Shown here: piece by piece, positions 27,718 through 51,460 of the stretch
Layout: every line of letters starts with the position of its first letter
How positions within the stretch are numbered: position 1 is the first letter of the stretch
Assembly (NCBI RefSeq): GCF_001590835.1
Contig: NZ_LTAQ01000067.1
Coordinates: 99,879 to 162,827 of the forward strand
Direction of reading: 5' to 3'
DNA length: 62,949 nt
Source: Bacillus gaemokensis
GTDB taxonomy: Bacteria; Bacillota; Bacilli; Bacillales; Bacillaceae_G
Translations under genes and position numbers: made by a program
Notes under the pieces: generated by a model
Database searches by the model: none
What the model was told of the DNA's origin: nothing
The model's input: the letters and a program-made list of their open reading frames with translations, nothing else

Positions 27718-28068
27718 TTAGTAACCACAAGCTGTAATAAATTCTTCTATTTTATTGTTCAAGTCACTTACATGCATGTATTTGTTTACATTTGGATTAT
27801 TTTCATCATTAAAGTCGTCTTCTTCAATGATTAATGGTGTAGAAGGTAAATGCGCTAGGTGAAGAAGATATTGTGGATCGAGATTAGCTCCATTCAAGCC
27901 AATTTCTTTAAACATTGCAGTACCTATCGAATGATATCTTGCAAAATCAGCCTTATGTACCCCTTTCATCATATCACTACCAATTCCTCTCATTACTTTT
28001 TCAATAGATGTTTCTAAAACTTTTTGTTTTGGTAAGCAGTTTATACTTAAAATTTTTTCAATATCCAC
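27718..28068 (-). CDS. Hypothetical protein, 116 residues, abutting an integrase remnant
   Basis: Not recognised. It is a soluble, acidic protein (MDIEKILSINCLPKQKVLET; C-terminal EEDDFNDENNPN). The start is within a few bases of the point where integrase-like coding sequence begins on the other strand, so the gene may be cut at its 5' end by the recombination that left the integrase tail. No strong ribosome site precedes the ATG. The 27548-27717 stretch downstream has no gene. Confidence 0.45.
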   Translation of the reverse strand: MDIEKILSINCLPKQKVLETSIEKVMRGIGSDMMKGVHKADFARYHSIGTAMFKEIGLNGANLDPQYLLHLAHLPSTPLIIEEDDFNDENNPNVNKYMHVSDLNNKIEEFITACGY

Positions 28069-28070
28069 AT

Positions 28071-28460
28071 CTCATTCACATTCCGAATGTCTTACTGGAA
28101 GAATTAAAAACTCATCGTCAATTTATTAAATATGAAAAAGAAAAAGCCGGTGATAAATACACCGACTTAGATTTAGTACTTCCTTCAAAATATGGTAATT
28201 CTTTAGATCAACGTAGTATTCGCCGATCATTTTATCATATCAGTGAAAAACTGGGATTGCCTCGAATAAGGTTCCACGATTTAAGACATAGTCATGCTAC
28301 AATGTTGATACAACAGAATGTGAATATCAAGTTAATCTCTGAACGTTTAGGTCATTCGCAAATACAAACAACACTAAATATCTACGCTCATGCAGTACCG
28401 GAGTTACAACGATCCGTAGCAGAAAAAATCGATCAGGTTTTCGAAAATTGTGACCAATAA
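28071..28460 (+). pseudogene. C-terminal fragment of a phage-type tyrosine integrase
   Basis: About 128 codons reading IPNVLLEELKTHRQFI, then the catalytic core RFHDLRHSHATMLIQQ, LGHSQIQTTLNIYAHAV and a stop at 28458. The box II triad HxxR with the H/Tyr end (GHSQ...IYAH) is present; the SAM-like N-terminal domain and the first catalytic Arg are absent. The homology starts abruptly at about 28071. It is the remnant of an integrated element whose other relics lie at 26993-27547. Confidence 0.8.
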
Positions 28461-33432: not shown

Positions 33433-33713
33433 TCCGATCTCTCCTTTCTCTATTCCCTATTATATACAAACTCTCGCGTCGTTAAAAGTTAGACAATTCA
33501 GCTAATACAATAAAATGAAGTTTCTTTCCCGATCATCCCCATACTAATTAGTCATTTTTCTTTTAGTTAAAGATAATACATATCGTATTCCCTTCGTTTT
33601 CAATAACTGATGTTGTAATATTCCTTTTCATATGTTGAAATCCTGCAAATATAACTCGTCAAAATATGCAATAGTACAAAAACCATTTCACTACACTTTC
33701 TACATGTAAATTT

Positions 33714-33735
33714 GTTTAGACATTTAGACAGTTTA
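33714..33735 (+). promoter_or_regulatory. Candidate activator site upstream of the sigma-54 promoter
   Basis: GTTTAGACA followed by TTTAGACAGTTTAC. The TAGACAGTTT(T)AC part is the same half-site as in the perfect palindrome at 40032-40055, which lies upstream of the other sigma-54 promoter. It ends 36 bp before the -24 element. The probable binder is the enhancer-binding protein encoded at 40075-41835. Confidence 0.65.
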
Positions 33736-33771
33736 CTCCTATCCTTTCTTTTTAATTAAAGGATTCAAACC

Positions 33772-33787
33772 TGGCACATTACTTGCA
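33772..33787 (+). promoter_or_regulatory. Sigma-54 promoter of the hydroxyisobutyryl-CoA hydrolase gene
   Basis: TGGCAC-ATTAC-TTGCA, a full match to the conserved -24 (GG) and -12 (GC) elements of sigma-54 promoters with correct spacing. It lies about 77 bp before the ATG at 33864. Confidence 0.88.
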
Positions 33788-33863
33788 TATTTTAAATGAT
33801 AAAGGACATTTCTACTTTCACCGAGAAATAAGAACTAGACAATATATAAGAGGAGGATTCAAA

Positions 33864-34916
33864 ATGACCGAAAATGTTTTATTTTCCATTGTTGAAAATG
33901 GTATTGCATCGATTACTTTAAACCGTCCAAAAGCACTTAACTCTTTATCTTATGATATGTTAAAACCCATTGGCCAAAAACTAAAAGAATGGGAAAAAGA
34001 TGATCGTATTGCAATTATCGTCTTAAAAGGTGCTGGTACAAAAGGATTTTGTGCTGGCGGTGATATTAAAACATTATATGAAGCTCGCTCTAGTGAAACT
34101 GCATTACAACATGCTGAACAATTCTTTGAAGAAGAGTATGAAATAGATACTTATATATATCATTATCCAAAACCAATTATCGCTTGTTTAGATGGAATTG
34201 TAATGGGTGGTGGTGTCGGCCTTACAAATGGCGCTAAACATCGAATTGTCACAGATCGAACAAAATGGGCCATGCCTGAAATGAACATTGGGTTTTTCCC
34301 AGATGTCGGCGCCGCTTATTTCTTAAATAAAGCACCTGGACAGGCTGGCCGATATGTCGCTTTAACAGCATCCGTTTTAAAAGCTGCTGATGTATTATAT
34401 ATAAATGCTGCTGATTATTATATGGCATCTGAAACATTACCTACTTTCCTTACCGAAGTTAAAAATGTAAATTGGCATAATCAAGATGTACATACAACTT
34501 TAAAAGCACTCATTCATAAATTTGCAACCACTCCTAATACTGAAAGTGAACTTACTTCCTTATTAGAAGAAATTAATCAACATTTTTCATTCCATACCGT
34601 TGAAGATATCATCCATTCATTAGAGAATGACGGAAGATCTTTCGCTTTAAAAACGAAAGAAACATTACTATCAAAATCCCCGTTCTCTTTAAAAATAACA
34701 CTAAAACAATTAATTGATGGAAAAGAAAAATCAATTGAAGAATGCTTTGCGACGGATCTGGTGCTCGCTAAAAATTTCATGCGACACGAAGATTTCTTTG
34801 AAGGAGTACGTTCAGTCGTTGTCGACAAAGATCAAAATCCACAGTACAAATATAAACAATTAAGTGACGTTTCAGATGAAGATGTAAACCGCTTCTTTAA
34901 TCTTCTTAATGCATAG
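33864..34916 (+). CDS. 3-hydroxyisobutyryl-CoA hydrolase (ECH_2 domain)
   Basis: 350 residues. The start at 33864 follows AGAGGAGGA; the upstream 27 in-frame codons lie across the promoter leader. Crotonase-fold features are FCAGGDIKTLYEA and CLDGIVMGGGVGLTNGAKHR, and GFFPDVGAAYFLNKAPG, with the long C-terminal helical extension (to 350) of the hydrolase subgroup rather than ordinary enoyl-CoA hydratase (about 260). It hydrolyses 3-hydroxyisobutyryl-CoA to the free acid in valine breakdown. The product is the substrate of MmsB encoded at 37318. A sigma-54 promoter drives it. Confidence 0.88.
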   Translation: MTENVLFSIVENGIASITLNRPKALNSLSYDMLKPIGQKLKEWEKDDRIAIIVLKGAGTKGFCAGGDIKTLYEARSSETALQHAEQFFEEEYEIDTYIYHYPKPIIACLDGIVMGGGVGLTNGAKHRIVTDRTKWAMPEMNIGFFPDVGAAYFLNKAPGQAGRYVALTASVLKAADVLYINAADYYMASETLPTFLTEVKNVNWHNQDVHTTLKALIHKFATTPNTESELTSLLEEINQHFSFHTVEDIIHSLENDGRSFALKTKETLLSKSPFSLKITLKQLIDGKEKSIEECFATDLVLAKNFMRHEDFFEGVRSVVVDKDQNPQYKYKQLSDVSDEDVNRFFNLLNA

Positions 34917-34918
34917 CG

Positions 34919-34965
34919 AAAAAAGCTAGATGAAGCAGCTTATCCACTGCCTCATCTAGCTTTTT
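34919..34965 (+). terminator. Terminator of the hydrolase gene
   Basis: AAAAAGCTAGATGA and TCATCTAGCTTTTT form a long stem, with AGCAG/CTGCC inside. Confidence 0.88.
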
Positions 34966-35074
34966 CATTCTCATATTATACATTATTAAATTTTCTTTAA
35001 TCCCTATCTTGAATTGTGTTACACTACTTTTAATTCAATTTTCAAAAAAACGAACAAAGAAAGGTGGAGGGATT

Positions 35075-35704
35075 GTGGAGAATTATTTTCTTTTTATTAT
35101 CATGTCTATTTGTCTTATTATTTTACCTGGCCCTGATACTGCAATGGCTACGAAAAACACTCTTACTGCAGGAAAAATAGGAGGAATAAAAACTGTTTTC
35201 GGTACATGTATCGCCCTTTTAATTCATACTTTAGCTGCTGTAATTGGGCTCTCAGCTATTATTGTTAAATCCGCTTTCTTATTTTCTATCTTTAAATATG
35301 TTGGTGCGATTTATCTAGTCTACTTAGGCATAAAAGCACTTTTATCTTTAAAAAACAAAAACAGCATTGATACGAATGAGCTGCCTATGAAACATGCAGT
35401 TGAAAACACATCTTGCTTCCGACAAGGTTTTCTTACGAATCTTTTAAATCCAAAAGTCGCTTTGTTCTTTTTGACCTTTTTACCGCAATTTTTAAATCCT
35501 AACCATAATACATTCATTCAATTTCTCATCATGGGACTTACTTATTTAGTTTTAACTGCAATATGGTTTGCCTTTTATATATTCTTAATTGATAAAATAA
35601 GTGTCTTTATGAAAAAGCCAACTACTCAAAGATACGTTCAAGGACTTACCGGCATTATTTTAATTGGATTTGGTATCAAATTAGCCTTCGAAAAAAATAG
35701 TTAA
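35075..35704 (+). CDS. LysE/RhtB family amino-acid exporter
   Basis: 209 residues from a GTG start preceded by AAAGGTGGAGGG; the 22 codons upstream in frame lack a ribosome site. The family signature ILPGPDTAMATKNTL lies in the first segment, and six membrane spans are predicted, with GFLTNLLNPKVALFFLTFLPQF in the middle. These proteins export amino acids or related small molecules. It sits between two valine-catabolic transcripts but has no sigma-54 site, so co-regulation is not implied. Confidence 0.88.
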   Translation: MENYFLFIIMSICLIILPGPDTAMATKNTLTAGKIGGIKTVFGTCIALLIHTLAAVIGLSAIIVKSAFLFSIFKYVGAIYLVYLGIKALLSLKNKNSIDTNELPMKHAVENTSCFRQGFLTNLLNPKVALFFLTFLPQFLNPNHNTFIQFLIMGLTYLVLTAIWFAFYIFLIDKISVFMKKPTTQRYVQGLTGIILIGFGIKLAFEKNS

Positions 35705-35708
35705 TGAT

Positions 35709-35745
35709 AAAAAATAGACCACTCTCTACTGAGGGGTCTATTTTT
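35709..35745. terminator. Bidirectional terminator between lysE and mmsA
   Basis: AAAAATAGACC and GGTCTATTTTT pair around a 14-base loop. Confidence 0.85.
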
Positions 35746-35781
35746 CGTACATGTAACAAGTTACATATTACTATTTGTCTA

Positions 35782-37242
35782 TTAAAACCAGCGCTCTGTC
35801 ACAACTTTCTTACGTGTATAGAATTGAACGCCATCTGTTCCATTTGTTCCAAGATCACCATAGAAGGACGCTTTATTACCAGCAAATGCGAAGAATGCCA
35901 TCGGTGCTGGAACATTAACATTTACGCCAATCATGCCTGCATCAATATTATCACGGAATGTTTGTGCATGTTTACCACTTGATGTATAAATAACTGCACC
36001 ATTTGCAAATTTTGATTGATTTGTTAGCTTAATTCCCTCTTCTAAATCTTTTACTCTCACAATACTCAGTACTGGAGCAAAGATTTCATCTTGCCAAATT
36101 TTCATATCTTGATTTACTCCATCAAAGATTGTTGCTCCAACAAAATACCCTTCGCCGGCCTCTTCATTAATCTTACGACCATCTACTAATAACGTAGCTC
36201 CATCTGCCACACCGCTATTAATATAGCCTAATACACGCTCTTTATGAGATTCACGAATTAATGGCCCTACGTAATTGTCCTCATGGAAGCCATCGCCTAC
36301 TTTTAATTTACGTGTTTCAGATACTAGTACATCAATAAATTCATCAGCAATTTCATCCACAACAGCTACAACAGAGCATGCCATGCAACGCTCGCCACTG
36401 CTTGCAAAAGCAGAACCAATTACACCTTGCACTGTTTTTTCAAGATTACAATCCGGCATAACAATTGCGTGGTTTTTCGCTCCTGCAAGTGCTTGTACTC
36501 GTTTTCCATATTTCGTTCCTGTTTCATATACATAGCGTGCTACTGGCTCAGAACCAACAAACGAAACAGCTTGAATGTCCTTATTTTCTAGAATGCTATT
36601 TACAACGTCTTTTCCGCCCTGTACTAAGTTTAGGACTCCTTTTGGGAAACCAGCTTCATAGAATAATTCTACAAGTCTCTCAGCTAAAAGCGGTGTTCTT
36701 TCCGATGTTTTCAGTACGAATGTATTACCACAAGCGATTGCCAGTGGGAACATCCATAAAGGAATCATCATCGGGAAGTTAAATGGTGTAATACCAGCAA
36801 CAACTCCGATTGGATAACGCCAAATCGATCCATCAATTCCACCTGCAATATTTGGAAGTGCTTGTCCCATCATTAAGTTTGGTGTTGATGTTGCAAGTTC
36901 TACAGCTTCAATACCACGCTGTACTTCACCGCTCGCATCTTTTAATGTTTTTCCATTTTCTAATGTAATAATTTTTGCAAGCTCATCTTTGTTTTCTTGT
37001 AGAAGTTGTAAATATTTATATAACTGTCTTGAACGATTCGGAACTGGAATTTTTGACCATGTTTCATAAGCCGCTTTGGCAGCTTCTACAGCACGATCCA
37101 CATCTTCTTTTGGAGAAAGCGGAACATAAGCGATGATTTTTCCTGTTGCAGGATTTGGGACAGCTTCGACTTCTGTACCAGTAGATTCTACCCATTCACC
37201 ATTAATATGATTTTTCACTCGTTTAATTTCTGTTGTAATCAT
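35782..37242 (-). CDS. mmsA: Methylmalonate-semialdehyde dehydrogenase (CoA-acylating)
   Basis: 486 residues, the usual length. Aldehyde dehydrogenase motifs: [40 protein letters not shown], and the catalytic Cys in GERCMACS near residue 285. MmsA converts methylmalonate semialdehyde and CoA to propionyl-CoA, CO2 and NADH. B. subtilis IolA is the homologue in inositol catabolism; here the neighbours (mmsB, acyl-CoA dehydrogenase) point to valine. Last gene of its operon, 75 bp after mmsB. Confidence 0.94.
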
Positions 37243-37317
37243 TATATTCGCTCCTTTTTGTTTTTAAAAGTAGAGATTCTTTCGTAATGAAAGTATAATC
37301 AGCGCTAGAACCATTCA

Positions 37318-38208
37318 TTATTCATGACTAGAGATGAGTTGTTCACTTACCTTCTTATATAAAGCAGCCATGTCCTTTTCACCATATCCCGCTTTACCAG
37401 CTTCATCATACAAATTCAATAGCATTTCACTTACTGGCAAGTGAAGTTCACTTTCTTTCGCTAAATCAACTGCAAATCCTAAGTCTTTCTTTAGTAGATT
37501 TACAGTAAATCCTGGCTCATAGCTTTCTGGTGCAATAAAACTTTTATAATTACGCTCGTAAATTCTACTTTGCCCGTAACTAACATTTAAAATATCAAAC
37601 ATTTTATCTAAATCCATATTATTTTTCTTCGCTAAAGTCAAAGCTTCACTTACACCTGCTGTGTAGAAGCCTATTAGTAAGTTATTAATGAGTTTTACAG
37701 TCGTGCCACTATCAATTTGCTCACTGACATGAAAAACATTCGCTCCTAATACTTCCATCACTGGTAAACCCTTTTCATATACTTCTTTCGATCCACCAAC
37801 CATAAAAGTTAATGTGCGATTTTCTGCTCCAATTACACCACCGCTAACTGGTGCAGCTAAGAAATCTACTTTCTTATCATCCGCAGCTTCTGCCAATCTT
37901 TTATTCAATTGCGGTGCTACTGTACTTGTATCAATTAGGACAACATTCGGATGGCTATTTTCAATCAAGCCTTCTGCTCCGAAATAAACACCTTCAACAG
38001 CCCGCGGGGATGGTAAACTTGTAAAAATCAAATCACATGTTTCTGCTAATTTTGCGATGGATAAGCCAATAATTCCTCCTTCTTTCTCAAAGGAAGCTTC
38101 AGCATCTTTATTTAAATCGACACCATACACAGTGAAATTAGATTTAACTAAATTTTTAGACATTGGAAAACCCATATTACCTAAACCAATAAAACCAATC
38201 TTTTTCAT
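37318..38208 (-). CDS. mmsB: 3-hydroxyisobutyrate dehydrogenase
   Basis: 296 residues. N-terminal NAD-binding GFIGLGNMGFPMSKNLVKS, the substrate-binding signature APVSGGVIGAE near residue 121, and the catalytic Lys region GTTVKLINNLLIG near 172. It oxidises 3-hydroxyisobutyrate to methylmalonate semialdehyde, the MmsA substrate. It starts 16 bp after the acyl-CoA dehydrogenase stop, so they share a transcript. Confidence 0.94.
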   Translation of the reverse strand: MKKIGFIGLGNMGFPMSKNLVKSNFTVYGVDLNKDAEASFEKEGGIIGLSIAKLAETCDLIFTSLPSPRAVEGVYFGAEGLIENSHPNVVLIDTSTVAPQLNKRLAEAADDKKVDFLAAPVSGGVIGAENRTLTFMVGGSKEVYEKGLPVMEVLGANVFHVSEQIDSGTTVKLINNLLIGFYTAGVSEALTLAKKNNMDLDKMFDILNVSYGQSRIYERNYKSFIAPESYEPGFTVNLLKKDLGFAVDLAKESELHLPVSEMLLNLYDEAGKAGYGEKDMAALYKKVSEQLISSHE

Positions 38209-38224
38209 ACTGTACTCCTCCTAT

Positions 38225-39934
38225 TTAAACAATATATTTTCCGCGATTTATAATGGCTTTCGCAATTTCTCTCTTTTTCGTAAATAAGTTCGTATATAGA
38301 GGTACTGACAGTTGACGGATTTCATCTAGAATAGCGTTTCTATTTTGTTCTTCTTTTACTGCTGCAGAAAGAAGAACAATTGCTACTGACTCTACTTTGC
38401 GATATCCTTCTTCACAAAGAACATCTGTTATGAATTGTTTTGTACGTTCTTTTTCCTCACCATTTTTACTTACCGCTTTCTTCGTACGTAGAAATGCTGA
38501 TTCCATTACATACACATCTTTCAACATGTCTGCTAATACGCGTGAATATTCTTGTTCTTGTTCAATTTTTAATTCAGGAGTTTGAGATAGCGTTTTCAAA
38601 GATTGTTTCAATAATTGTTTCGATAATAAAATATAACGATGATTTCGCTCGATATTTTCAAAGTTTCCTTCATCTTTGTGATCCTCTATTTGCTTCATTT
38701 GTTTCATTAACATTTTTGCAACTGTTAATCGATTAATTTCATTCGTCCCTTCAAAAATACGACTAATTCTAGCATCTCGGTATAATCGTTCTACCTCATA
38801 CTCTTGCATATAGCCATAACCACCATGAATTTGTACAGCTTCATCTACAATGTGTCCAAGTATTTCTGAAGCGTTTACTTTATTAATGGCACACTCAATT
38901 GCAAATTGAGACATCTTCTGCATGATGCTTTCGTCACTCTCATGAATTGCATCATCAATTACACCCGCTGTCCGATAAGCAGCACTCTCTGCACCATATG
39001 TAGCGATGATCATATCGGCAATTTTCTCTTGAATCATCGTGAAATCCACTAATTCTGTTTGAAACTGTTTTCGTTCTTTGCCGTATTGAACAGATAAACC
39101 AATTGCTTGCTTGGCTGTCCCAATATTTCCAAAAGCAAGTTTCAATCTAGCAAAGTTAAGAATATTGAGAGCTACGTGGTGCCCCTTTGCAACTTCCCCT
39201 AATACATTCTCAGCAGGAATTACGACATCCTCTAAAATAAGTGTCGCAGTCGAAGAACCTTTAATACCCATTTTCTTTTCTTCTAGACCAATTGAAACAC
39301 CTTCACATGTTCTTTCGACAATAAATGCTGTCATTCCTTTATTTGTCTTTGCAAAAACAACATATACATCAGCCATATGAGCATTGGTAATCCACTGCTT
39401 TTCACCATTTAATTTCCAAGCCGTTCCGTCTTCATTTAATACAGCGCTTGTTTTGGCACTTAACGCATCTGATCCAGCATTAGGCTCTGTTAATGCATAA
39501 GCCCCAATCCATTCACCTGATGCGATTTTCGGTAAGTATTTTTCCTTCTGCTTTTCTGTCCCGTAATATATATATGGTAATGTACCTACTCCAGCATGAA
39601 TGTTAAAGGAAACACTAAATGCTCCTGCATATCCCATCTTTTCCGCTACAAGTCCAGAAACTGCTTTTCCTAATTCGAATCCACCATATTCTTCTGGCAC
39701 CTCTACACTTAACAATCCAAGTTCTCCAGCCTTTTCAAATAACCCTCGAGAAACTTGATAATTGTGCTGTTCGATGTTTTCAATTTGAGGAACAATTTCC
39801 TGTTTAACAAATTGTTCCGTTGTTTTTGCGATTAAATCTTCATCACCTGAAAAATCCTCAGGTGTAAAAAAGGTTGTATTAAGCTCCTTATTCAGCGAAA
39901 AAAATTCGTCCCATTGCAACTTTGTTTTCTCCAT
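38225..39934 (-). CDS. Acyl-CoA dehydrogenase, probably isobutyryl-CoA dehydrogenase
   Basis: 569 residues. The FAD-linked acyl-CoA dehydrogenase core occupies about 30-410: VPEEYGGFELG, AYALTEPNAGSDALSAKT, the ITNAHMADVYVVFAKT strand, and QIHGGYGYMQEYEVERLYRD near the C-terminal end. An extra helical domain of about 150 residues follows, as in FadE/VLCAD-like Bacillus enzymes. The first gene of the operon with mmsB and mmsA; that context supports isobutyryl-CoA to methacrylyl-CoA, but substrate range cannot be read from sequence. A sigma-54 promoter and palindrome lie upstream. Confidence 0.9.
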   Translation of the reverse strand: MEKTKLQWDEFFSLNKELNTTFFTPEDFSGDEDLIAKTTEQFVKQEIVPQIENIEQHNYQVSRGLFEKAGELGLLSVEVPEEYGGFELGKAVSGLVAEKMGYAGAFSVSFNIHAGVGTLPYIYYGTEKQKEKYLPKIASGEWIGAYALTEPNAGSDALSAKTSAVLNEDGTAWKLNGEKQWITNAHMADVYVVFAKTNKGMTAFIVERTCEGVSIGLEEKKMGIKGSSTATLILEDVVIPAENVLGEVAKGHHVALNILNFARLKLAFGNIGTAKQAIGLSVQYGKERKQFQTELVDFTMIQEKIADMIIATYGAESAAYRTAGVIDDAIHESDESIMQKMSQFAIECAINKVNASEILGHIVDEAVQIHGGYGYMQEYEVERLYRDARISRIFEGTNEINRLTVAKMLMKQMKQIEDHKDEGNFENIERNHRYILLSKQLLKQSLKTLSQTPELKIEQEQEYSRVLADMLKDVYVMESAFLRTKKAVSKNGEEKERTKQFITDVLCEEGYRKVESVAIVLLSAAVKEEQNRNAILDEIRQLSVPLYTNLFTKKREIAKAIINRGKYIV

Positions 39935-39972
39935 CTGTATCCCCCTATCATTTCGGTCTTCATTTTCTTTAT

Positions 39973-39990
39973 ATGCAAAATCTATGCCAA
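39973..39990 (-). promoter_or_regulatory. Sigma-54 promoter of the acyl-CoA dehydrogenase-mmsB-mmsA operon
   Basis: On the minus strand TTGGCAT-AGATT-TTGCAT: GG and GC of the -24/-12 elements are intact and correctly spaced. It lies about 40 bp before the ATG at 39934. Confidence 0.85.
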
Positions 39991-40031
39991 ACTAAAAACT
40001 CGATAGAACTTGGGCTAAATGAAAAGAAAAC

Positions 40032-40055
40032 GTAAAACTGTCTAGACAGTTTTAC
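40032..40055. promoter_or_regulatory. Perfect 24-bp palindrome, candidate enhancer (UAS)
   Basis: The two 12-base arms GTAAAACTGTCT and AGACAGTTTTAC are exact reverse complements. It lies about 42 bp upstream of the -24 element of the mmsB operon and 20 bp after the stop of the enhancer-binding protein gene. The half-site recurs at 33724-33735 before the second sigma-54 promoter. It has no proper loop or T tract, so a terminator role is unlikely. Confidence 0.75.
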
Positions 40056-40074
40056 ATTGTTTATAATAATTTGT

Positions 40075-41835
40075 TTAGATTTTGAATCGTGACAATTTAT
40101 TATAAAGAGTCGCCCTAGAAATTCCTAACAATGCTGCTGCTTTTGACTTATTCCCTTTTGCTTCTTTTAAAACACGTTCAATTAATCCACGCTCTTCTTC
40201 TTCACGCACGACTTTCATCGCTTCTTGCTTTGCTGGTAGAGACTGAATCATAGGTACTAATTTTTTCTGCTCCATATCTCGATAATAGAACTCTTCTGGT
40301 AAATCTTTAGTCCTTATATGTGCATCGTCTGATAGAGCAAATAACCTTTCTAGCACATTGATTAACTCACGAACATTACCTGGCCAATTGTAATGGAACA
40401 TAAGTCGTAATACTTCCTTGTCCAGTGTCTTTTCCTCAGCACCGTATGTTTGACACAACTTTTGTATATGTTCTTCTACAATGAGCGGAATGTCTTGCTT
40501 TCGAAAACGTAGTGCGGGAATATGAATCGGAATGACGTGAAGACGATGATATAAATCTTCTCTGAATGTACCTTCTTTAACCATTTGTTTTAAATCTTTA
40601 TTGGTCGCTGCGATTAGCCTGAAATCAACAGAAATTGGATGTGTACCACCTATTCTTTCTATCTCTCTTTCTTGCAGGACACGTAAGATTTTCACCTGCG
40701 TTAATAGGGACATATCACCAATTTCATCTAAAAATAACGTTCCATGATTGGCAAGCTCAAACTTCCCTGCCTTTCCATTCTTTTTCGCACCTGTAAAAGC
40801 ACCTTCTGCATAACCAAACAGTTCCGATTCTAATAAATTCTCAGGAATAGCAGCGCAGTTTACACTAATAAATGGACCATTTTTCGTTATACCTGTATCA
40901 TGTATTGCCCGCGCAAATTGTTCTTTACCAACACCACTCTCTCCAGTAATTAACACAGATGCTTTGGTTTGTGCTGCTTTTCGAGCCATTTTTTTCGTCT
41001 CAGAAATTGTTTGACTCTCTCCAAGAATATCTTCAAATCGAATTTGCTTCTTTCTCGGCTTAGAAAACAGTGGTTTTACGGATCCATCCTTTTGATCAAA
41101 TCTCTCTAATATTTTATAAATATCTGAAATACCTTCATGGATAAGCATTCCTACAGCACCGATCACTCTACCTTGCTTCCAGATGGGCATCCGGTGTACG
41201 ACTAAATTTTGACCTTGCAAACGATGTACTTGATTTCGCTCTGGAACACCCGTTTTTAGCACAACTGGAAGCCTCGTATTCTCAATTACATTTTCGGCGA
41301 GCTGTCCAATAGCTTCTTCCTTCGTTACCCCAACAAAGCAGCTATACGTATCATTAAACATTTGAATAACACCACGTTCATCTACAATGGCAATTCCTTC
41401 ATAAGCCGTATCAAAGGAAAGAAGAAACCATTCAATTAAACGCTTTGATTCTTTCAATTGCTGTTCTAAAAATGTTTGAAAAGCAAGCAGCTCAGATTGC
41501 CCTATCACTCCTTCTAGTACTCCACTCTTCTCGTTTATCACATAAAGTGGTAAACACTTCACTTCTTCCATTTGTTTCTCTGTACTTCCCTGACAAAAAT
41601 TTTGCTGAGCAATCATGCAAACTGGGGTACACTCATTACTATTTTCTTTCATCCATTGAACACAATCTAATAGTTTTACAATACCAGCCATTCGATTCCC
41701 CTCTAGTACAGGTAGTTCATGAGTCGCTGATGCAATGAATAGATCGATTGCCTCTGCAACCGTAGTATTCATTTTCACAAACTGAAAATCATCATTCAGC
41801 CATTTTCCTACAGAGTAATCTTCTATAGAGTTCAT
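40075..41835 (-). CDS. Sigma-54-dependent enhancer-binding protein with CBS and PAS sensors
   Basis: 586 residues. The start at 41835 follows AAAGAGGTGG; 21 upstream codons in frame have no ribosome site. Domains: a CBS pair (about 8-115), PAS (about 140-235, with AYEGIAIVDERGVIQMFNDT), AAA+ ATPase (about 275-505) with Walker A GESGVGKEQFAR and the sigma-54 contact loop GAFTGAKK, and a Fis-type helix-turn-helix (NKSKAAALLGISRATLYNKL) at the end. The layout resembles BkdR/AcoR-type Bacillus activators. CBS pairs often bind adenosyl ligands, possibly acyl-CoA or AMP here. Two neighbouring sigma-54 promoters are its likely targets. Confidence 0.93.
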   Translation of the reverse strand: MNSIEDYSVGKWLNDDFQFVKMNTTVAEAIDLFIASATHELPVLEGNRMAGIVKLLDCVQWMKENSNECTPVCMIAQQNFCQGSTEKQMEEVKCLPLYVINEKSGVLEGVIGQSELLAFQTFLEQQLKESKRLIEWFLLSFDTAYEGIAIVDERGVIQMFNDTYSCFVGVTKEEAIGQLAENVIENTRLPVVLKTGVPERNQVHRLQGQNLVVHRMPIWKQGRVIGAVGMLIHEGISDIYKILERFDQKDGSVKPLFSKPRKKQIRFEDILGESQTISETKKMARKAAQTKASVLITGESGVGKEQFARAIHDTGITKNGPFISVNCAAIPENLLESELFGYAEGAFTGAKKNGKAGKFELANHGTLFLDEIGDMSLLTQVKILRVLQEREIERIGGTHPISVDFRLIAATNKDLKQMVKEGTFREDLYHRLHVIPIHIPALRFRKQDIPLIVEEHIQKLCQTYGAEEKTLDKEVLRLMFHYNWPGNVRELINVLERLFALSDDAHIRTKDLPEEFYYRDMEQKKLVPMIQSLPAKQEAMKVVREEEERGLIERVLKEAKGNKSKAAALLGISRATLYNKLSRFKI

Positions 41836-41872: not shown

Positions 41873-41937
41873 AAAAAGGCGATGAATCTCCACATCAAGC
41901 AGTTGTTTTTGCCAAAGATGTCTCATCATCGCCTTTT
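41873..41937. terminator. Bidirectional terminator-like hairpin between prpB and the regulator gene
   Basis: AAAAAGGCGATGA and TCATCGCCTTTT pair across about 40 bases of loop. It probably ends the prpC-prpD-prpB transcript before the regulator gene. Confidence 0.7.
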
Positions 41938-41946
41938 CCCATTGTT

Positions 41947-42855
41947 TTATTGATCTTCAGATAATACCGTTTTTGCAATTCCGTTATCTAATTCCTCAAA
42001 ATCATGATACGAAATTGTTTCGTACAATTCACTTCTTGTTTGCATATTAGACAAGCCCTCTTTTTGTGAACCTGTTTCTTTAATCAACGTAAATACGCGC
42101 TCATATGCTTTCGCTGCAACGCGAAGTGATGTAACTGGATAAATCACCATCTGGAAGCCCATGTTTGCAAATTCTTCTGCACTATAATATGGTGTTTTTC
42201 CAAATTCGGTCATGTTCGCAAGTAGTGGAACATTTACTTTACTGTTAAACAAACGGAATTCTTCTTCAGATTGAAGTGCTTCTGGGAAAACAGCATCCGC
42301 ACCTGCTTTTACATAAGCAATTGCCCTTTCAATCGCTGCATCCAATCCTTCTACACCGCGAGCATCTGTACGTGCTACAACAACTAGGGTTGGTGCGACT
42401 TCTTTAATTGCTTTAATCTTTTGGACTAACTCCTCAGTGGAAACAAGTTTTTTCCCATTTAAATGTCCACATTTCTTCGGCAATTGTTGATCTTCAATTT
42501 GGACAGCAGCTACATTCGCTTCTACCATTTCTACCGCAGTACGTGCCACATTTAGTACTCCGCCAAATCCTGTATCAATATCAACAAGAAGAGGTAAATC
42601 CGTTGCTCTAACAAGGTCTCTTGCTCTTTCAGCTACTTCAGTAGACGTTACAATACCTAAATCTGGTAACCCCTTACTTGCTGTATAAGCAGCTCCCGAT
42701 AAATAAAGAGTTGAAAATCCAGTATTTTTTGCAACAAGAGCGGCCATTGCATCATGTGCACCAGGAATTTGTAAAATTTCAGGTGCTTCTACTAAAGCGC
42801 GAAATCGATTGGCAAGCTCTTCTTGTGTTGACTGTTTACTCACAACCCAAGCCAT
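41947..42855 (-). CDS. prpB: 2-methylisocitrate lyase
   Basis: 302 residues. The isocitrate-lyase superfamily signature KKCGHL is at 127-132, preceded by the metal-binding DIDTGFGG and QIEDQ. It splits 2-methylisocitrate into pyruvate and succinate, the last step of the methylcitrate cycle. Third gene of prpC-prpD-prpB, 16 bp after prpD. Confidence 0.95.
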   Translation of the reverse strand: MAWVVSKQSTQEELANRFRALVEAPEILQIPGAHDAMAALVAKNTGFSTLYLSGAAYTASKGLPDLGIVTSTEVAERARDLVRATDLPLLVDIDTGFGGVLNVARTAVEMVEANVAAVQIEDQQLPKKCGHLNGKKLVSTEELVQKIKAIKEVAPTLVVVARTDARGVEGLDAAIERAIAYVKAGADAVFPEALQSEEEFRLFNSKVNVPLLANMTEFGKTPYYSAEEFANMGFQMVIYPVTSLRVAAKAYERVFTLIKETGSQKEGLSNMQTRSELYETISYHDFEELDNGIAKTVLSEDQ

Positions 42856-42871
42856 TCTTATTCCCCCTATC

Positions 42872-44308
42872 TTAAATTAAGAAAAGATCTACAAATTCAT
42901 TTACATTCATATTTTCTAATTTTTCTTCATTTAAACAAACTTCATGGATTGTTTCTTGTTGTTTATTAGAATAATGAACTGCCATGTTCGCAGAAAACTT
43001 CTGAATAACCTTTGGAATTGCTTCATCTCTACGGAAGCGATGACCAAGTGGATATTCACACTCAACATTTTCTGTCACTGTTCCATCTTTGAAATGAATT
43101 TGAACCGCATTGGCGATTGAGCGCTTGTTCGGATCAAGGTAATCTAAACTATATTGTTTGTTTTCTACAACGACCATCTTATTTCGTAATTCATCTACAC
43201 GAGGATCAAATGCAACTTCATCTTCATAGTCATCTGCAACGATATCGCCTTTTAACAGACCAATTGCAGTAATGTATTGCAAGCAATGATCACGATCAGC
43301 TGGATTATTTAACGGACCTTCTTTATCAATAATACGAACTGCTGATTCATGTGTCGTAATTGTAATACGATCAATTTCGTCTAGTCGTTCTTTCACTTCT
43401 GGATGTAATTTCACTGCACATTCTGCAGCTGTTTGTGCATGGAACTCGGCTGGATAAGATACTTTAAACAATACGTTTTCCATTACATAAGACTCTAAAG
43501 GTCTTGCTAATTTTAGTTCTTGCTTATTAAACAATACATCTTGGAATCCCCAGCCTGGTGCAGATAGCGCTGTTGGATAACCCATTTCTCCTTTTAATGC
43601 AGTAAGCGCAAGATGAACACCACGGCTCGTTGCATCTCCCGCTGCCCACGACTTACGAGAGCCTGTATTTGGAGCATGACGATATGTACGAAGACTAGAG
43701 TTATCAATCCACGCATGAGACAATGCATTAAAGATTTCTTCACGCGATCCACCAAGCATTTTCGTAACAACTGCCGTTGTCGCTACTTTTACATATAGTA
43801 CATGGTCAAGACCAACGCGGTTTAAACTATTTTCTAAAGCAAGTACACCTTGAATTTCATGCGCTTTAATCATCATTTCAAGTACATCGCGTACTTTTAA
43901 TGCTTCTTTTCCTTCTGAAACACGAACGCGGCTCACATAATCTGCAACAGCTAAAATTCCACCTAAATTATCAGACGGATGTCCCCATTCTGCCGCAAGC
44001 CATGTATCGTTATAGTCTAGCCAACGAATCATACACCCAATATTAAAAGCACCGCGTACTGGATCAAGTACAAATGATGTTCCTGGTACACGTGTACCAT
44101 TTGGCACAACAGTTCCTGGCACGACTGGTCCTAGTAATTTCGTACACTCTGGATATTGCAATGCTAAAATCCCGCACCCAAGCGTATCAAGTAACACATA
44201 ACGTGCTGTACTGAATGCTTCTGAACTTGTTACCTCTTTATTTAATACATAATCCGTAATCTCTTCTAAAATTGCATCTTTTTGTTTAATTTCATTTGTT
44301 TTAATCAC
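42872..44308 (-). CDS. prpD: 2-methylcitrate dehydratase (MmgE/PrpD family)
   Basis: 478 residues from a GTG start at 44308; AAAGGGA lies 9-10 bases upstream, and the start gives the usual PrpD length. The upstream in-frame codons (to 44392) run through a GC-rich hairpin region and are unlikely to be coding. Family features: [52 protein letters not shown] and [13 protein letters not shown]. It dehydrates 2-methylcitrate to 2-methyl-cis-aconitate. Confidence 0.94.
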
Positions 44309-44406
44309 GCTATCATTCCCTTTCTGTCGAAAATTCGTTATTATTAAGGATGGGTGTCGGTCAAACACCCACCTGGCGGGCGGCCTTAACAACTCCCCAG
44401 TTGTTT
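44309..44406 (-). other. GC-rich intercistronic hairpins between prpC and prpD
   Basis: The 98 bases after the prpC stop hold AACAACT/AGTTGTT closing over GGGG, then a C+G-rich stretch (AAGGCCGCCCGCCAGG) and GGGTGT/ACACCC around TTGACCG. The core (about 44344-44385) is near 70% GC, far above the surrounding DNA. It may set differential expression of prpC and prpD or be an inserted repeat. Confidence 0.55.
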
Positions 44407-45525
44407 TTATTTGCTAAGCACATGTCGCTCGCCGATATAATTTACACGTGGGCGGAACAAGCGATTATTTGTATGCTGTTCAATAACATGCGCACATAGC
44501 CCTACCGTTCTTGAACTGAAAAAGATTGGTGTATACAGTTGAATTGGAATCCCTAACATCCAATATACTGGAGCAGCATAATAATCTAGATTCGGATAAA
44601 TACCTTTTTCTTTCTCCATAATCTTTTCTCCAGCTTCACACATTTCATATAATGTATAATCACCTTTTACATCACATAACTGTTTTAAAGCTTCTTTCAT
44701 CATAAGCGCCCTTGGATCCATCTTCTTCATGTAGACGCGATGTCCAAATCCCATGATTTTCTCTTTGTTGTATAGTTTCTTTTGCAATAACTCTTCAAAT
44801 TTCTCAACAGTTCCTGCTTCTAAAAGCATGTACATAACTGCTTCATTCGCACCGCCATGTAAACTTCCTTTTAAGGATGCAACCGCTCCTGTTAGAGCAC
44901 CGTATAAATCTGATTGCGTAGATGCGATAACGCGAGCTGTGAAAGTAGAGTTTGGCATTTCATGTTCACTATATAAAACAAGAGAGCGGTCAAAGATTTT
45001 TTCTTCAAGCTCAGTTGGTTTTTTTCCAGTTAACATATAGAAAAAGTTTGCACTATACGATAACTCCTGAAGCGGCCCGATCGGCTTTTCGTTATTTAAA
45101 ATGTGATAACTATTTGCTACAATATTTGGCACCTTACTTAACAGTTTATAGCCGCGACTTTTGTTAACCTCTAACGAACGATTTTCAATATCATTATCGT
45201 AACCAGCTAATGCGGATACACCTGTACGTAATCCATCCATAGGATGCGTTTCTTTTGGCAATGCTTTTAAAACATTGAACACACCTTCTGGCACTTCGTA
45301 TTCTTCCTTCAATTTCTTTTCAAGTGTTTCCTTTTCATCCTCACTTGGTAGATGTTCTTCTAATAAAAGGTGCACAATATCTAAATAACTTTTTGTCTTT
45401 GATAACTCAATTAAGTCATATCCTTGAATAACAATTTCACCTTTTACTGTGTCGAGAAACGAGATTTTCGTCTCCGCTGCCACTACACCGTCTAATCCCG
45501 GGGAAAATTTTTCTTCAGCTTTCAT
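44407..45525 (-). CDS. prpC: 2-methylcitrate synthase
   Basis: 372 residues from the ATG at 45525, which follows GGAGGAAATAAT; the upstream GTG extension of 12 codons runs through that ribosome site and is rejected. Citrate-synthase-fold motifs: [48 protein letters not shown], and RPRVNYIG. It condenses propionyl-CoA with oxaloacetate. Distinction from citrate synthase rests on the prpD-prpB context; Bacillus enzymes of this type may use both acyl-CoAs. Confidence 0.93.
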
Positions 45526-46385: not shown

Positions 46386-47512
46386 TTATGCAATTTCCTT
46401 TTTTGCTAATCGCTGTTTTACAAAAAACATAAAAATTAAGAGAGCTACCACTCCTGAAACCGCACTGGCAGTGAACAAGATACGATAACCAAAAAGTTGT
46501 GAAACAAAACCTAATAAAATAGCACCAAGTCCAATCCCTAAGTCAAACGCCGTAAAAAAAGAGGCATTTGCAATCCCTCTTTTACTCGGATCGACAATTC
46601 TAAGCATTGCTGCCTGTAAGGTTGGCTGCGCTGAACCAAATCCAATACCGTACAAAATTGCTGCTATAATAACCCCGATTAAACCATTAGAGGTAGTTAA
46701 AACAAGTATCGCCAATACTGTTATTAATAAAGCTGGCAAGATTATAAACACCTCTCCGTATTTATCCGATAATTTCCCCGAAATTGGCCGGATAACTGTT
46801 AATGCAGTTGCATACACAAAAAAGAATGTACCTGGATTCACATCAATAGATGCTGCAAACAGTGGTAAAAAAGTTGTAATCCCCCATATGCAAATGATAA
46901 AAAGAAAATAACAATTGCAATAGGTAAAATCGACTTTTCAAATAGCTGAATTTTTCCTTTTCCTTCTTGCGGTGTGAACGGAATTTTCGTCATAAATGTA
47001 AGGAACATTGCCATAAATGACAACAGGGTCGCTAAAAGGAATAACCCATGAAAGGAATAACTTTGTATCATCCACAAACCAATCATCGGTCCAATTGCCA
47101 TCCCATACCATCCCATTCCTTCTCCACGGCGAGAATTTGGAATAATATCCGTAATGGCTGTTCCAACCGCAGTTGTAGAAACTGCCCATGTCAAGCCGTG
47201 AATAATTCGTAAAACGGCTAAAAGTGCAATACTTGCTATCCAATTATATGAATACATCGTAATCCCAAAAAAGATTAGCCCCCAAATGATAAAAGGTCTT
47301 CTTCCATATTTATCTAACAATCCACCGATAACCGGTCGAGCAACAACAGCCGCTATCGTAAACATGCCCATCATAAATCCAACTTGAGATTCACTACCCC
47401 CTAACTCCTTTATAAATAACGGGAGTGTTGGAACAAGTAAATAAAAACCTGTAAATAAAAATAACATTGCAACAGTCATTTGAATAAATGACTTCGTCCA
47501 TAATCGCTCCAT
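46386..47512 (-). pseudogene. MFS transporter, frameshifted in a G run
   Basis: Two minus-strand frames together make one MFS carrier of about 375 residues. The first (47512 to 46838) has the motif-A segment GLLDKYGRRPFIIWG and ends shortly after SFAYGG; the second continues in another frame as ITTFLPLFAASIDVN and runs to 46386 (RPISGKLSDKYGEVF). The frames join if the C5 run at 46881-46885 (G5 on the coding strand) had one more base. Either a natural frameshift or a homopolymer miscall. GGAGG precedes the start. Substrate unknown; resembles Bacillus YfkF/YitG-type drug or sugar efflux carriers. Confidence 0.8.
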
Positions 47513-50904: not shown

Positions 50905-51253
50905 TTTCTCCTCCATTTTTCTAATATTATTTGCATGTAAAACATAGAATGTAAGAGATGGACTTTCAAAAATCTTATACAGCAAGGTGTAAAAACATAT
51001 GACCTCGTATAAATAATATACTTTTTTTACATTTGGTCAAATTTTTCTATTGGCATAACTATGGCTAGCAAATCAATAGTGAGATAAAAATATCATAACA
51101 ATATGAATTTCATGTGAACTCAAGCTAAAACAAGCACACAAAAAAAGTGCTAGTCATAAACACCATGCAACATCCCCATACTATATTTCTATAAATTAGC
51201 AGGATTTCCCTTTATCAATATCTAAATATATTTAAGAGAGGAGATGAACTAAC

Positions 51254-51460
51254 ATGACTCTATATCCGGTAATTTCTAAAACTTTAGTCGCTGTAGGTTA
51301 TAATCCATCGTCAATGATTTTACGAATTGAATTTAGAAATGGTACATATGATTTCTATGCTGTACCTGAAAGCATTTATACAGGATTATTAAATGCACAA
51401 TCAAAAAGCTACTATCATAATACTTATATTAAAAACTCTTTTCGTCACACTAAAATTTAG
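51254..51460 (+). CDS. KTSC-domain protein
   Basis: 68 residues. SKTLVAVGYNPSSMILRIEF, then GTYDFYAVPESIYTGLLNA, SKSYYHNTYIKNSF match the KTSC domain (also found fused to lysyl-tRNA synthetases), where the F/Y-x-V-P and the S..G..F/Y-N..I elements are typical. Function unknown. AGAGAGGAG precedes the ATG. It is a single gene; no clear terminator is seen. Confidence 0.85.
   Translation: MTLYPVISKTLVAVGYNPSSMILRIEFRNGTYDFYAVPESIYTGLLNAQSKSYYHNTYIKNSFRHTKI

What the first reader, a model, noticed from the sequence alone, without database searches (positions are those of the whole stretch)
33714..41835. A two-promoter sigma-54 regulon with a shared palindromic activator site
Two near-perfect sigma-54 promoters (33772-33787 plus; 39973-39990 minus) face different valine-catabolic transcripts. 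Each has a TAGACAGTTT(T)AC element about 36-42 bp upstream of the -24; one is a perfect 24-bp palindrome (40032-40055). The adjacent enhancer-binding protein has a CBS pair plus PAS input, a sensor combination that suggests sensing of a nucleotide or acyl-CoA ligand. The site-to-promoter distance is unusually short for an enhancer.
Basis: partly seen in the sequence, partly recalled or inferred. Interest (0 to 1): 0.72.

Follow-up and report, generated by a model that had tools for sequence, protein, structure and literature searches.

The report
Valine-breakdown switch with paired DNA sites
Two sets of valine-breakdown genes in a Bacillus cereus-type bacterium each begin with a sigma-54 promoter and the same four-part DNA site at exactly the same distance, most likely bound by the activator protein encoded beside them; the type of switch is known, but this site layout and its near-fixed spacing look like a new variant.

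Summary
Both sigma-54 promoters exist (33772 plus, 39989 minus) and are the two best in the window; the 24-bp palindrome is perfect; the adjacent activator has CBS, PAS, sigma-54 AAA+ and Fis-type HTH domains. The shared site was misread: it is not TAGACAGTTT(T)AC but a 26-bp array of four half-sites, TGT-N5-TGT-N4-ACA-N5-ACA (two overlapping TGT-N12-ACA dyads). Both window copies end exactly 41 bp before TGG. The window and relatives give 13 promoter-array pairs: spacer 39-43 bp in 11, 52 and 63 bp (one and two helical turns more) in two, although spacer sequence has largely diverged. Of 15 ACAD promoters of relatives, 7 carry the full array, 5 a partial one, 3 none. Scanning 397 genomes for array plus promoter gave four hits, each near a related activator gene, and none for the reversed control. 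TGT-N10-12-ACA sites are known for PrdR-type activators (PMC6615313), so this is a new variant of a known kind. Relatives lacking the CBS pair or the PAS domain occur naturally. The palindrome may double as a terminator, in the window only. Ligand, binding and activation are untested.

The parts
33705..33730 (+). Four-half-site array TGTAAATTTGTTTAGACATTTAGACA: predicted activator site of the HIBCH promoter
   Evidence: 12 of 12 fixed bases, spacer 41 bp to TGG; 0 of 500 shuffles reach it
33772..33787 (+). sigma-54 -24/-12 promoter TGGCACATTACTTGCA
   Evidence: 17.4 bits, second best in window
33864..34916 (+). 3-hydroxyisobutyryl-CoA hydrolase (HIBCH)
   Evidence: NCBIfam NF004127 460 bits, cut-off 274
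35782..37242 (-). MmsA, CoA-acylating methylmalonate-semialdehyde dehydrogenase
   Evidence: TIGR01722 598 bits, cut-off 448.5
37318..38208 (-). MmsB-like 3-hydroxyisobutyrate dehydrogenase
   Evidence: TIGR01692 216 bits, below its cut-off 291.6; named by neighbourhood
38225..39934 (-). Acyl-CoA dehydrogenase (ACAD), presumed isobutyryl-CoA dehydrogenase
   Evidence: NF058590 663 bits, cut-off 600; substrate inferred
39974..39989 (-). sigma-54 -24/-12 promoter TGGCATAGATTTTGCA of the ACAD-mmsB-mmsA operon
   Evidence: 20.2 bits, best in window
40031..40056 (-). Four-half-site array TGTAAAACTGTCTAGACAGTTTTACG: predicted activator site of the ACAD promoter
   Evidence: 11 of 12 fixed bases, spacer 41 bp to TGG
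40032..40055 (.). Perfect 24-bp palindrome inside the array; possible terminator of the regulator transcript (minus strand)
   Evidence: palindrome; hairpin -13.2 kcal/mol, z -4.84; terminator-like
40075..41835 (-). Enhancer-binding protein, CBS-CBS-PAS-AAA+-HTH_8, with GAFTGA motif
41873..41938 (-). Strong hairpin with T tail between prpB and the regulator gene, terminator-like
   Evidence: -27.7 kcal/mol, z -5.77
41947..45525 (-). Methylcitrate-cycle genes mmgD, prpD, prpB (context: they would take the propionyl-CoA from valine)
   Evidence: NCBIfam TIGR02317, TIGR02330, NF009004 above cut-offs

Best explanation
The protein encoded at 40075-41835 is a one-component sigma-54 enhancer-binding protein for valine breakdown. 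Through its Fis-type HTH it binds a 26-bp array of four half-sites (two overlapping TGT-N12-ACA dyads offset by 8 bp), centred 54 bp upstream of the TGG of each -24/-12 promoter (by the usual promoter geometry, recalled, about -80 from the start of transcription). When its CBS-PAS input domain senses a pathway signal, its AAA+ domain remodels sigma-54 RNA polymerase and switches on ACAD-mmsB-mmsA and the HIBCH gene together. Shown here by sequence: the promoters, the arrays, their conservation in part of the relatives, their spacing and their genomic link to this regulator family. Inferred: binding, activation, the ligand, and two dimers per array.
For: Array plus promoter in 17 chosen relatives: 8 hits in 7 genomes, 0 with the reversed control; 7 of the 8 adjoin the regulator gene and the eighth lies one gene away, about 1.7 kb (regulator positions). 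In 397 genomes of an order: 4 hits in 4 genomes, 0 control; 3 at valine-type loci already seen, the fourth (G319) beside a divergent 42%-identical regulator and an aldehyde dehydrogenase, with a 62-bp spacer by my count. 13 promoter-array pairs of at least 11 of 12 fixed bases in 19 sources: spacer 39-43 bp in 11, 52 and 63 bp in two; spacer sequence has largely diverged, median identity 0.28 against 0.26 shuffled, in the 10 promoters compared. An array turned up by pattern scan before the enoyl-CoA hydratase-HIBCH pair of G111 (spacer 43), and a near copy in G144, match the window's second promoter. Relatives add enoyl-CoA hydratase and an MbcS-type acyl-CoA synthetase to the neighbourhood. 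Order mmgD-prpD-prpB-regulator-ACAD-mmsB-mmsA-HIBCH is kept in G037, G111, G144. In print: a B. thuringiensis sigL mutant cannot use valine as nitrogen source (PMC4428206), and genes for branched-chain amino acid degradation are down in a B. cereus rpoN mutant (PMC4524646, abstract).
Against: No binding or expression data. The pattern was derived from these same loci, so the 17-genome scan is partly circular; 10 of the 17 had no hit. In the 397 genomes, 51 hold a regulator match at E 1e-130 or better, and only 3 of those 51 have the full array with promoter. Of 20 promoters tested, 10 fall below 11 of 12: five have 9 (L175, L190, L191, L238, L239), one 8 (L177), four 6 (L233, L234 and both of L176). 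The promoters before enoyl-CoA hydratase in L235 and L236 showed no good dyad within 160 bp (best 8 of 10). Single dyads also occur at other distances, for example centred 27 bp (L237), 78 bp (L235), 140 and 145 bp (L234, L233) before TGG, so the spacing rule holds for full arrays only. L174 lacked a promoter match. The HD73 paper lists eight regulators, none described with a CBS domain (PMC4428206), so the locus may be absent or missed there. No near-identical relative turned up in the genomes searched.
Confidence: 0.82

Rival explanations
1. The palindrome is only the intrinsic terminator of the regulator gene, and the resemblance to the element at 33725 is chance.
For: The array begins 18 bp after the regulator's stop codon, folds to -13.2 kcal/mol with z -4.84, and is followed by a T-rich tract.
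Against: The plus-strand copy is no clear hairpin (z -1.68 and -0.38 on the two strands) yet has the same half-sites at the same 41-bp spacing. In relatives the full arrays fold less strongly (-4.3 to -8.8 kcal/mol for the eight; -1.4 to -10.3 for the five 9-of-12 sites). Only 3 GC pairs in the stem.
Confidence: 0.06
2. The palindrome does both jobs in the window: activator site, and terminator that insulates the catabolic operon from readthrough of the regulator gene.
For: As above, plus the array evidence.
Against: Weak GC content; the tail begins with G, then TTTTCTTTTC; a hairpin this strong is not kept in the relatives examined.
Confidence: 0.4
3. The arrays are bound by another regulator, such as BkdR or a repressor, and the neighbouring protein acts elsewhere.
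For: BkdR is the known sigma-54 activator of isoleucine and valine degradation genes in Bacillus (PMC4428206, PMC4524646). No binding test exists.
Against: The genome-scan hits of array plus promoter lie beside or one gene from this regulator family; its HTH recognition segment is near-constant in array-bearing loci, though also in several loci without the full array; TGT-N10-12-ACA is the site class of PrdR (PMC6615313), whose model is its nearest in NCBIfam.
Confidence: 0.07
4. One reading: the site is the TAGACAGTTT(T)AC element, palindromic in its full form.
For: Exact copies at both promoters and nowhere else in the window.
Against: Distances differ (about 36 and 42 bp); the relatives printed keep TGT/ACA half-sites but not TAGACAGTTT as such.
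Confidence: 0.06

Closest known systems
PrdR and related enhancer-binding proteins of Clostridiales (PMC6615313)
   Same: PrdR model aligns over residues 5-584 of the window protein; [quoted passage not shown] for 32 of 39 activator groups target operons have several sites
   Different: Score 500 bits against a cut-off of 795; valine rather than proline genes next to it; sites overlap in a 26-bp array ending about 41 bp from the promoter, while most Clostridiales sites lie 100-250 bp away
SoxR of B. thuringiensis HD73 (PMC4941409, passages)
   Same: sigma-54 activator in the same bacterial group with a short site-promoter distance (54 bp upstream of the transcription start) and two sigma-54 target promoters
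   Different: One 11-bp inverted repeat with 7-bp gap serves both promoters, one of them at least 1.7 kb away; here each promoter has its own array
BkdR of B. subtilis and the B. cereus group
   Same: sigma-54 control of valine and isoleucine breakdown
   Different: Acts on the bkd operon (PMC4428206, PMC4524646), which precedes the steps encoded here (pathway order recalled); has two PAS/PAC domains and no CBS is described
NifA/FhlA-type UAS
   Same: Inverted TGT and ACA, the class to which PMC6615313 likens the PrdR-type sites
   Different: Spacer 12 here, and doubled with an 8-bp offset; NifA's spacer of 10 is recalled
CbrB of Pseudomonas putida (PMC6296734, passages)
   Same: Several subsites per promoter on one face of the helix
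   Different: Three non-palindromic subsites with variable spacing, not an overlapping palindromic array

Membership tests
sigma-54 enhancer-binding proteins | AAA+ sigma-54 interaction domain with GAFTGA loop | tested here: met
   PF00158 8.1e-72; GAFTGA in the translation
sigma-54 enhancer-binding proteins | C-terminal Fis-type HTH | tested here: met
   PF02954 4.7e-14, residues 544-584
sigma-54 enhancer-binding proteins | -24/-12 promoter at the target genes | tested here: met
   counted by eye, a match within about 250 bp of the regulator gene in 33 of 34 relative loci (L174 lacked one)
sigma-54 enhancer-binding proteins | ATP-dependent activation of sigma-54 polymerase | not testable with these tools
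   needs biochemistry
PrdR (NCBIfam NF041552) | score above the curated cut-off | tested here: not met
   500.3 bits against 795
PrdR (NCBIfam NF041552) | control of proline reductase genes | tested here: not met
   the neighbours examined are valine and methylcitrate genes; the rest of the genome was not available
[quoted passage not shown]
   TGT-N12-ACA at 33705-33722, 33713-33730 and 40039-40056
Intrinsic terminator (palindrome 40032-40055) | stable GC-rich stem followed directly by a U run | tested here: inconclusive
   13-pair stem with 3 GC pairs, T-rich tail interrupted by G and C
Distal valine pathway enzymes | HIBCH, MmsA and MmsB above family cut-offs | tested here: inconclusive
   HIBCH and MmsA met; MmsB 216 bits under its 291.6 cut-off

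The most novel reading that the evidence does not exclude
This enhancer is not a loosely placed looping enhancer but a fixed-geometry one: overlapping dyads hold the activator on one face of the helix at a set distance (about 41 bp, or one or two whole turns more), so that it touches polymerase over a short rigid arc without a bending protein, and the input side tolerates loss of either the CBS pair or the PAS domain.
Probability: 0.35. Interest if true: 0.6.

Novelty: new variant of a known kind. Interest (0 to 1): 0.43.

Why it matters
It gives valine breakdown in Bacillaceae a candidate dedicated sigma-54 activator and a precise, testable operator. Enhancers are usually described as tolerant of distance; a spacing kept to a few base pairs or whole helical turns while most of the spacer sequence drifts would be a clean system for asking how close and how rigid an activator-polymerase contact can be. 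Natural orthologues lacking the CBS pair or the PAS domain make the input domains separable without engineering. I saw no description of this regulator or array in the search listings nor in what I read of the seven papers opened; most listed papers were not opened, and the library lacks most subscription journals.

Tried and rejected
Searches of plasmids and viral contigs gave nothing useful on the locus. A first promoter pattern was one base too short and was replaced; one search is used only for gene matches. Reading the palindrome alone as the shared site was rejected because the relatives printed do not keep it. A single-dyad genome search gave many hits, some in the control, and was not used as evidence. 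The HD73 and ATCC 14579 sigma-54 papers showed no mention of this operon in the passages and sections read; their supplements could not be opened. Word searches in two broad sigma-54 surveys gave no relevant passage. Rfam was not searched; an RNA-switch reading was not pursued.
Full report
The region. On the minus strand the window carries mmgD, prpD, prpB (methylcitrate cycle), then an enhancer-binding protein gene (40075-41835), then an operon of acyl-CoA dehydrogenase (ACAD), an mmsB-like dehydrogenase and mmsA; on the plus strand a 3-hydroxyisobutyryl-CoA hydrolase gene (HIBCH, 33864-34916) points towards them. HIBCH and MmsA pass their NCBIfam cut-offs, ACAD passes that of a Bacillus FadE model, MmsB does not pass its own. 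Together they are most of the distal valine pathway, whose product propionyl-CoA feeds the methylcitrate cycle (pathway knowledge recalled). Gene content looks like the Bacillus cereus group (my reading); no whole genome is held.

The promoters. The plus site at 33772 matches the pattern exactly and the minus site at 39989 has one mismatch. Loose matches as such are not enriched. A matrix from 12 published promoters (PMC4428206, Table 2, section 16 read) puts these two on top of the window. In random sequence of the same size (first-order Markov) a site of at least 16 bits turned up in 31 of 100 trials, so the score alone does not prove them. In relatives a -24/-12 match within about 250 bp of the regulator gene is present in 33 of 34 loci, counted by eye (L174 lacked one).

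The activator site. Aligning the two promoters on TGG shows a better match: TGT-N5-TGT-N4-ACA-N5-ACA at 33705-33730 and at 40056-40031, each separated from TGG by exactly 41 bp. This is two TGT-N12-ACA dyads overlapping with an 8-bp offset. The window by itself gives modest statistics: two matches with at most one mismatch, against a mean of 0.22 in shuffles, 3 of 100 shuffles reaching two. Relatives decide. Of 20 promoters tested (2 in the window, 18 in relatives), 10 reach 11 or 12 of the 12 fixed bases, and for each of them none of 500 shuffles of its own upstream DNA did; five have 9, one 8 and four 6. Of the 15 ACAD promoters of relatives among them, 7 have the full array, 5 have 9 of 12, 3 have 6. 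In the ten arrays compared, three positions that were not part of the selection (A at 5, A at 13, T at 20, counting from 0) are also constant, though several of these genomes are close kin.

Spacing. A scan of the window and 18 relative loci for any array of at least 11 of 12 bases within 20-109 bp of a promoter (13 bits or more) found 13 pairs: 11 with spacers of 39-43 bp, one of 52 and one of 63. The two exceptions are close to one and two helical turns longer; G319 (below) has 62 by my count. For the ten promoters compared, spacer sequence is mostly no more alike than shuffled sequence (median 0.28 against 0.26); six of 45 pairs exceed the shuffled 95th percentile of 0.39, led by G037 with G403 (0.81) and the window's ACAD promoter with these two (0.54). 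So length is kept better than letters. The array before the enoyl-CoA hydratase-HIBCH pair in G111 was found only by these scans, and G144 has a near copy with one longer spacer. Against a general rule: single dyads also occur at other distances, centred 27 bp (L237), 78 bp (L235), 140 and 145 bp (L234, L233) before TGG, and in regulators of other clusters at 74-100 bp (L178, L179, L180).

Specificity. A search for promoter plus array in 17 chosen genomes gave eight hits in seven genomes and none for the reversed pattern; ten genomes had none. Seven hits adjoin the regulator gene and the eighth, in G775, lies about 1.7 kb from it with the MbcS-type gene between (positions). These genomes supplied the pattern, so this is not independent. 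In 397 genomes of one order there were four hits and no control hit: three at loci already seen (G403, G037, G718) and one in G319, where the array lies beside a divergent 42%-identical regulator and an aldehyde dehydrogenase. In the same 397 genomes 51 had a regulator match at E 1e-130 or better; only three of these show the full array with promoter, so the array marks a subset of this regulator family. A single-dyad search gave many more hits, with a few in the control, and was not used as evidence.

The regulator. It has a CBS pair (one domain called by Pfam; residues 14-124 align with 5g5r_A), a PAS domain like those of CitA and DcuS, the sigma-54 AAA+ domain and a Fis-type HTH. The nearest NCBIfam model is PrdR, well under its cut-off. 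Relatives at valine-type loci differ in input: G037, G403, G111 and G144 have the CBS part without PAS, G197 and G357 have PAS without CBS (Pfam run on G037, G111, G197, the others by alignment or sequence). So either half may suffice to control the AAA+ domain in nature; which ligand each binds is unknown.

Wider regulon. In relatives full or 11-of-12 arrays also precede an MbcS-type acyl-CoA synthetase (G775), the HIBCH gene (G775) and the enoyl-CoA hydratase-HIBCH pair (G111); MbcS scores 858.5 bits in L232 and 847 in L235 against a cut-off of 850, and the enoyl-CoA hydratases are under theirs. This would complete the pathway from isobutyrate to propionyl-CoA. Exceptions without a good site: L233 and L234 ACAD, L235 and L236 enoyl-CoA hydratase, and both promoters of L176.

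Terminator rival. The minus-strand copy folds strongly, begins 18 bp after the regulator's stop codon and has a T-rich tail. The plus-strand copy does not fold clearly, and relatives' arrays fold less strongly. A double role in the window is plausible; a terminator-only reading is not.

Comparison with print. [quoted passage not shown] PMC4941409 (passages) places a SoxR repeat 54 bp upstream of a start of transcription. PMC4428206 (passages and sections 16-19) lists eight regulators in HD73, none described with a CBS domain, and loss of valine use as nitrogen source without sigL. PMC4524646 (abstract, section 20 and passages) reports lower branched-chain degradation genes in an rpoN mutant; its gene table is in a supplement I could not open. 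PMC6296734 (passages) describes multi-subsite binding by CbrB. I saw no account of this regulator or array in the listings or in what I read of the seven papers opened.

Verdict. A real, probably functional two-promoter sigma-54 regulon of a known kind, with an operator layout and near-locked spacing that make it a new variant. Interest moderate. On checking I lowered the main confidence by 0.01, for the 51-genome result and the dyads at other distances.

Noticed in passing
window 51050-51066 plus: TTGGCATAACTATGGCT, third-best sigma-54-like site of the window (14.8 bits) and one base away from the published HD73 kamA promoter (PMC4428206); followed by a 68-aa ORF at 51254.
   Followed up: partly
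window 46386-47512 minus: Two overlapping ORFs (151 and 224 aa) look like one transporter gene of the major facilitator type split by a frame change (family by my reading).
   Followed up: no
window 41873-41938: Strong hairpin between prpB and the regulator gene (-27.7 kcal/mol), so the regulator may have its own promoter, which I did not locate.
   Followed up: partly
L189, L190, L191, L242 against L174, L177: Relatives of the regulator at valine-type loci lack either the PAS domain or the CBS pair.
   Followed up: partly
L188 upstream of 10887; L192 upstream of 9259: Instead of inverted dyads these regulators' promoters are preceded by TGT half-sites in direct repeat about every 9-11 bp (read by eye).
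   Followed up: no
L237 6619-8074: The mmsA reading frame of G777 is split into two ORFs (146 and 324 aa).
   Followed up: no
window 28008-28460 plus: 150-aa ORF that looks like the C-terminal part of a phage-type integrase, without the rest (family by my reading).
   Followed up: no
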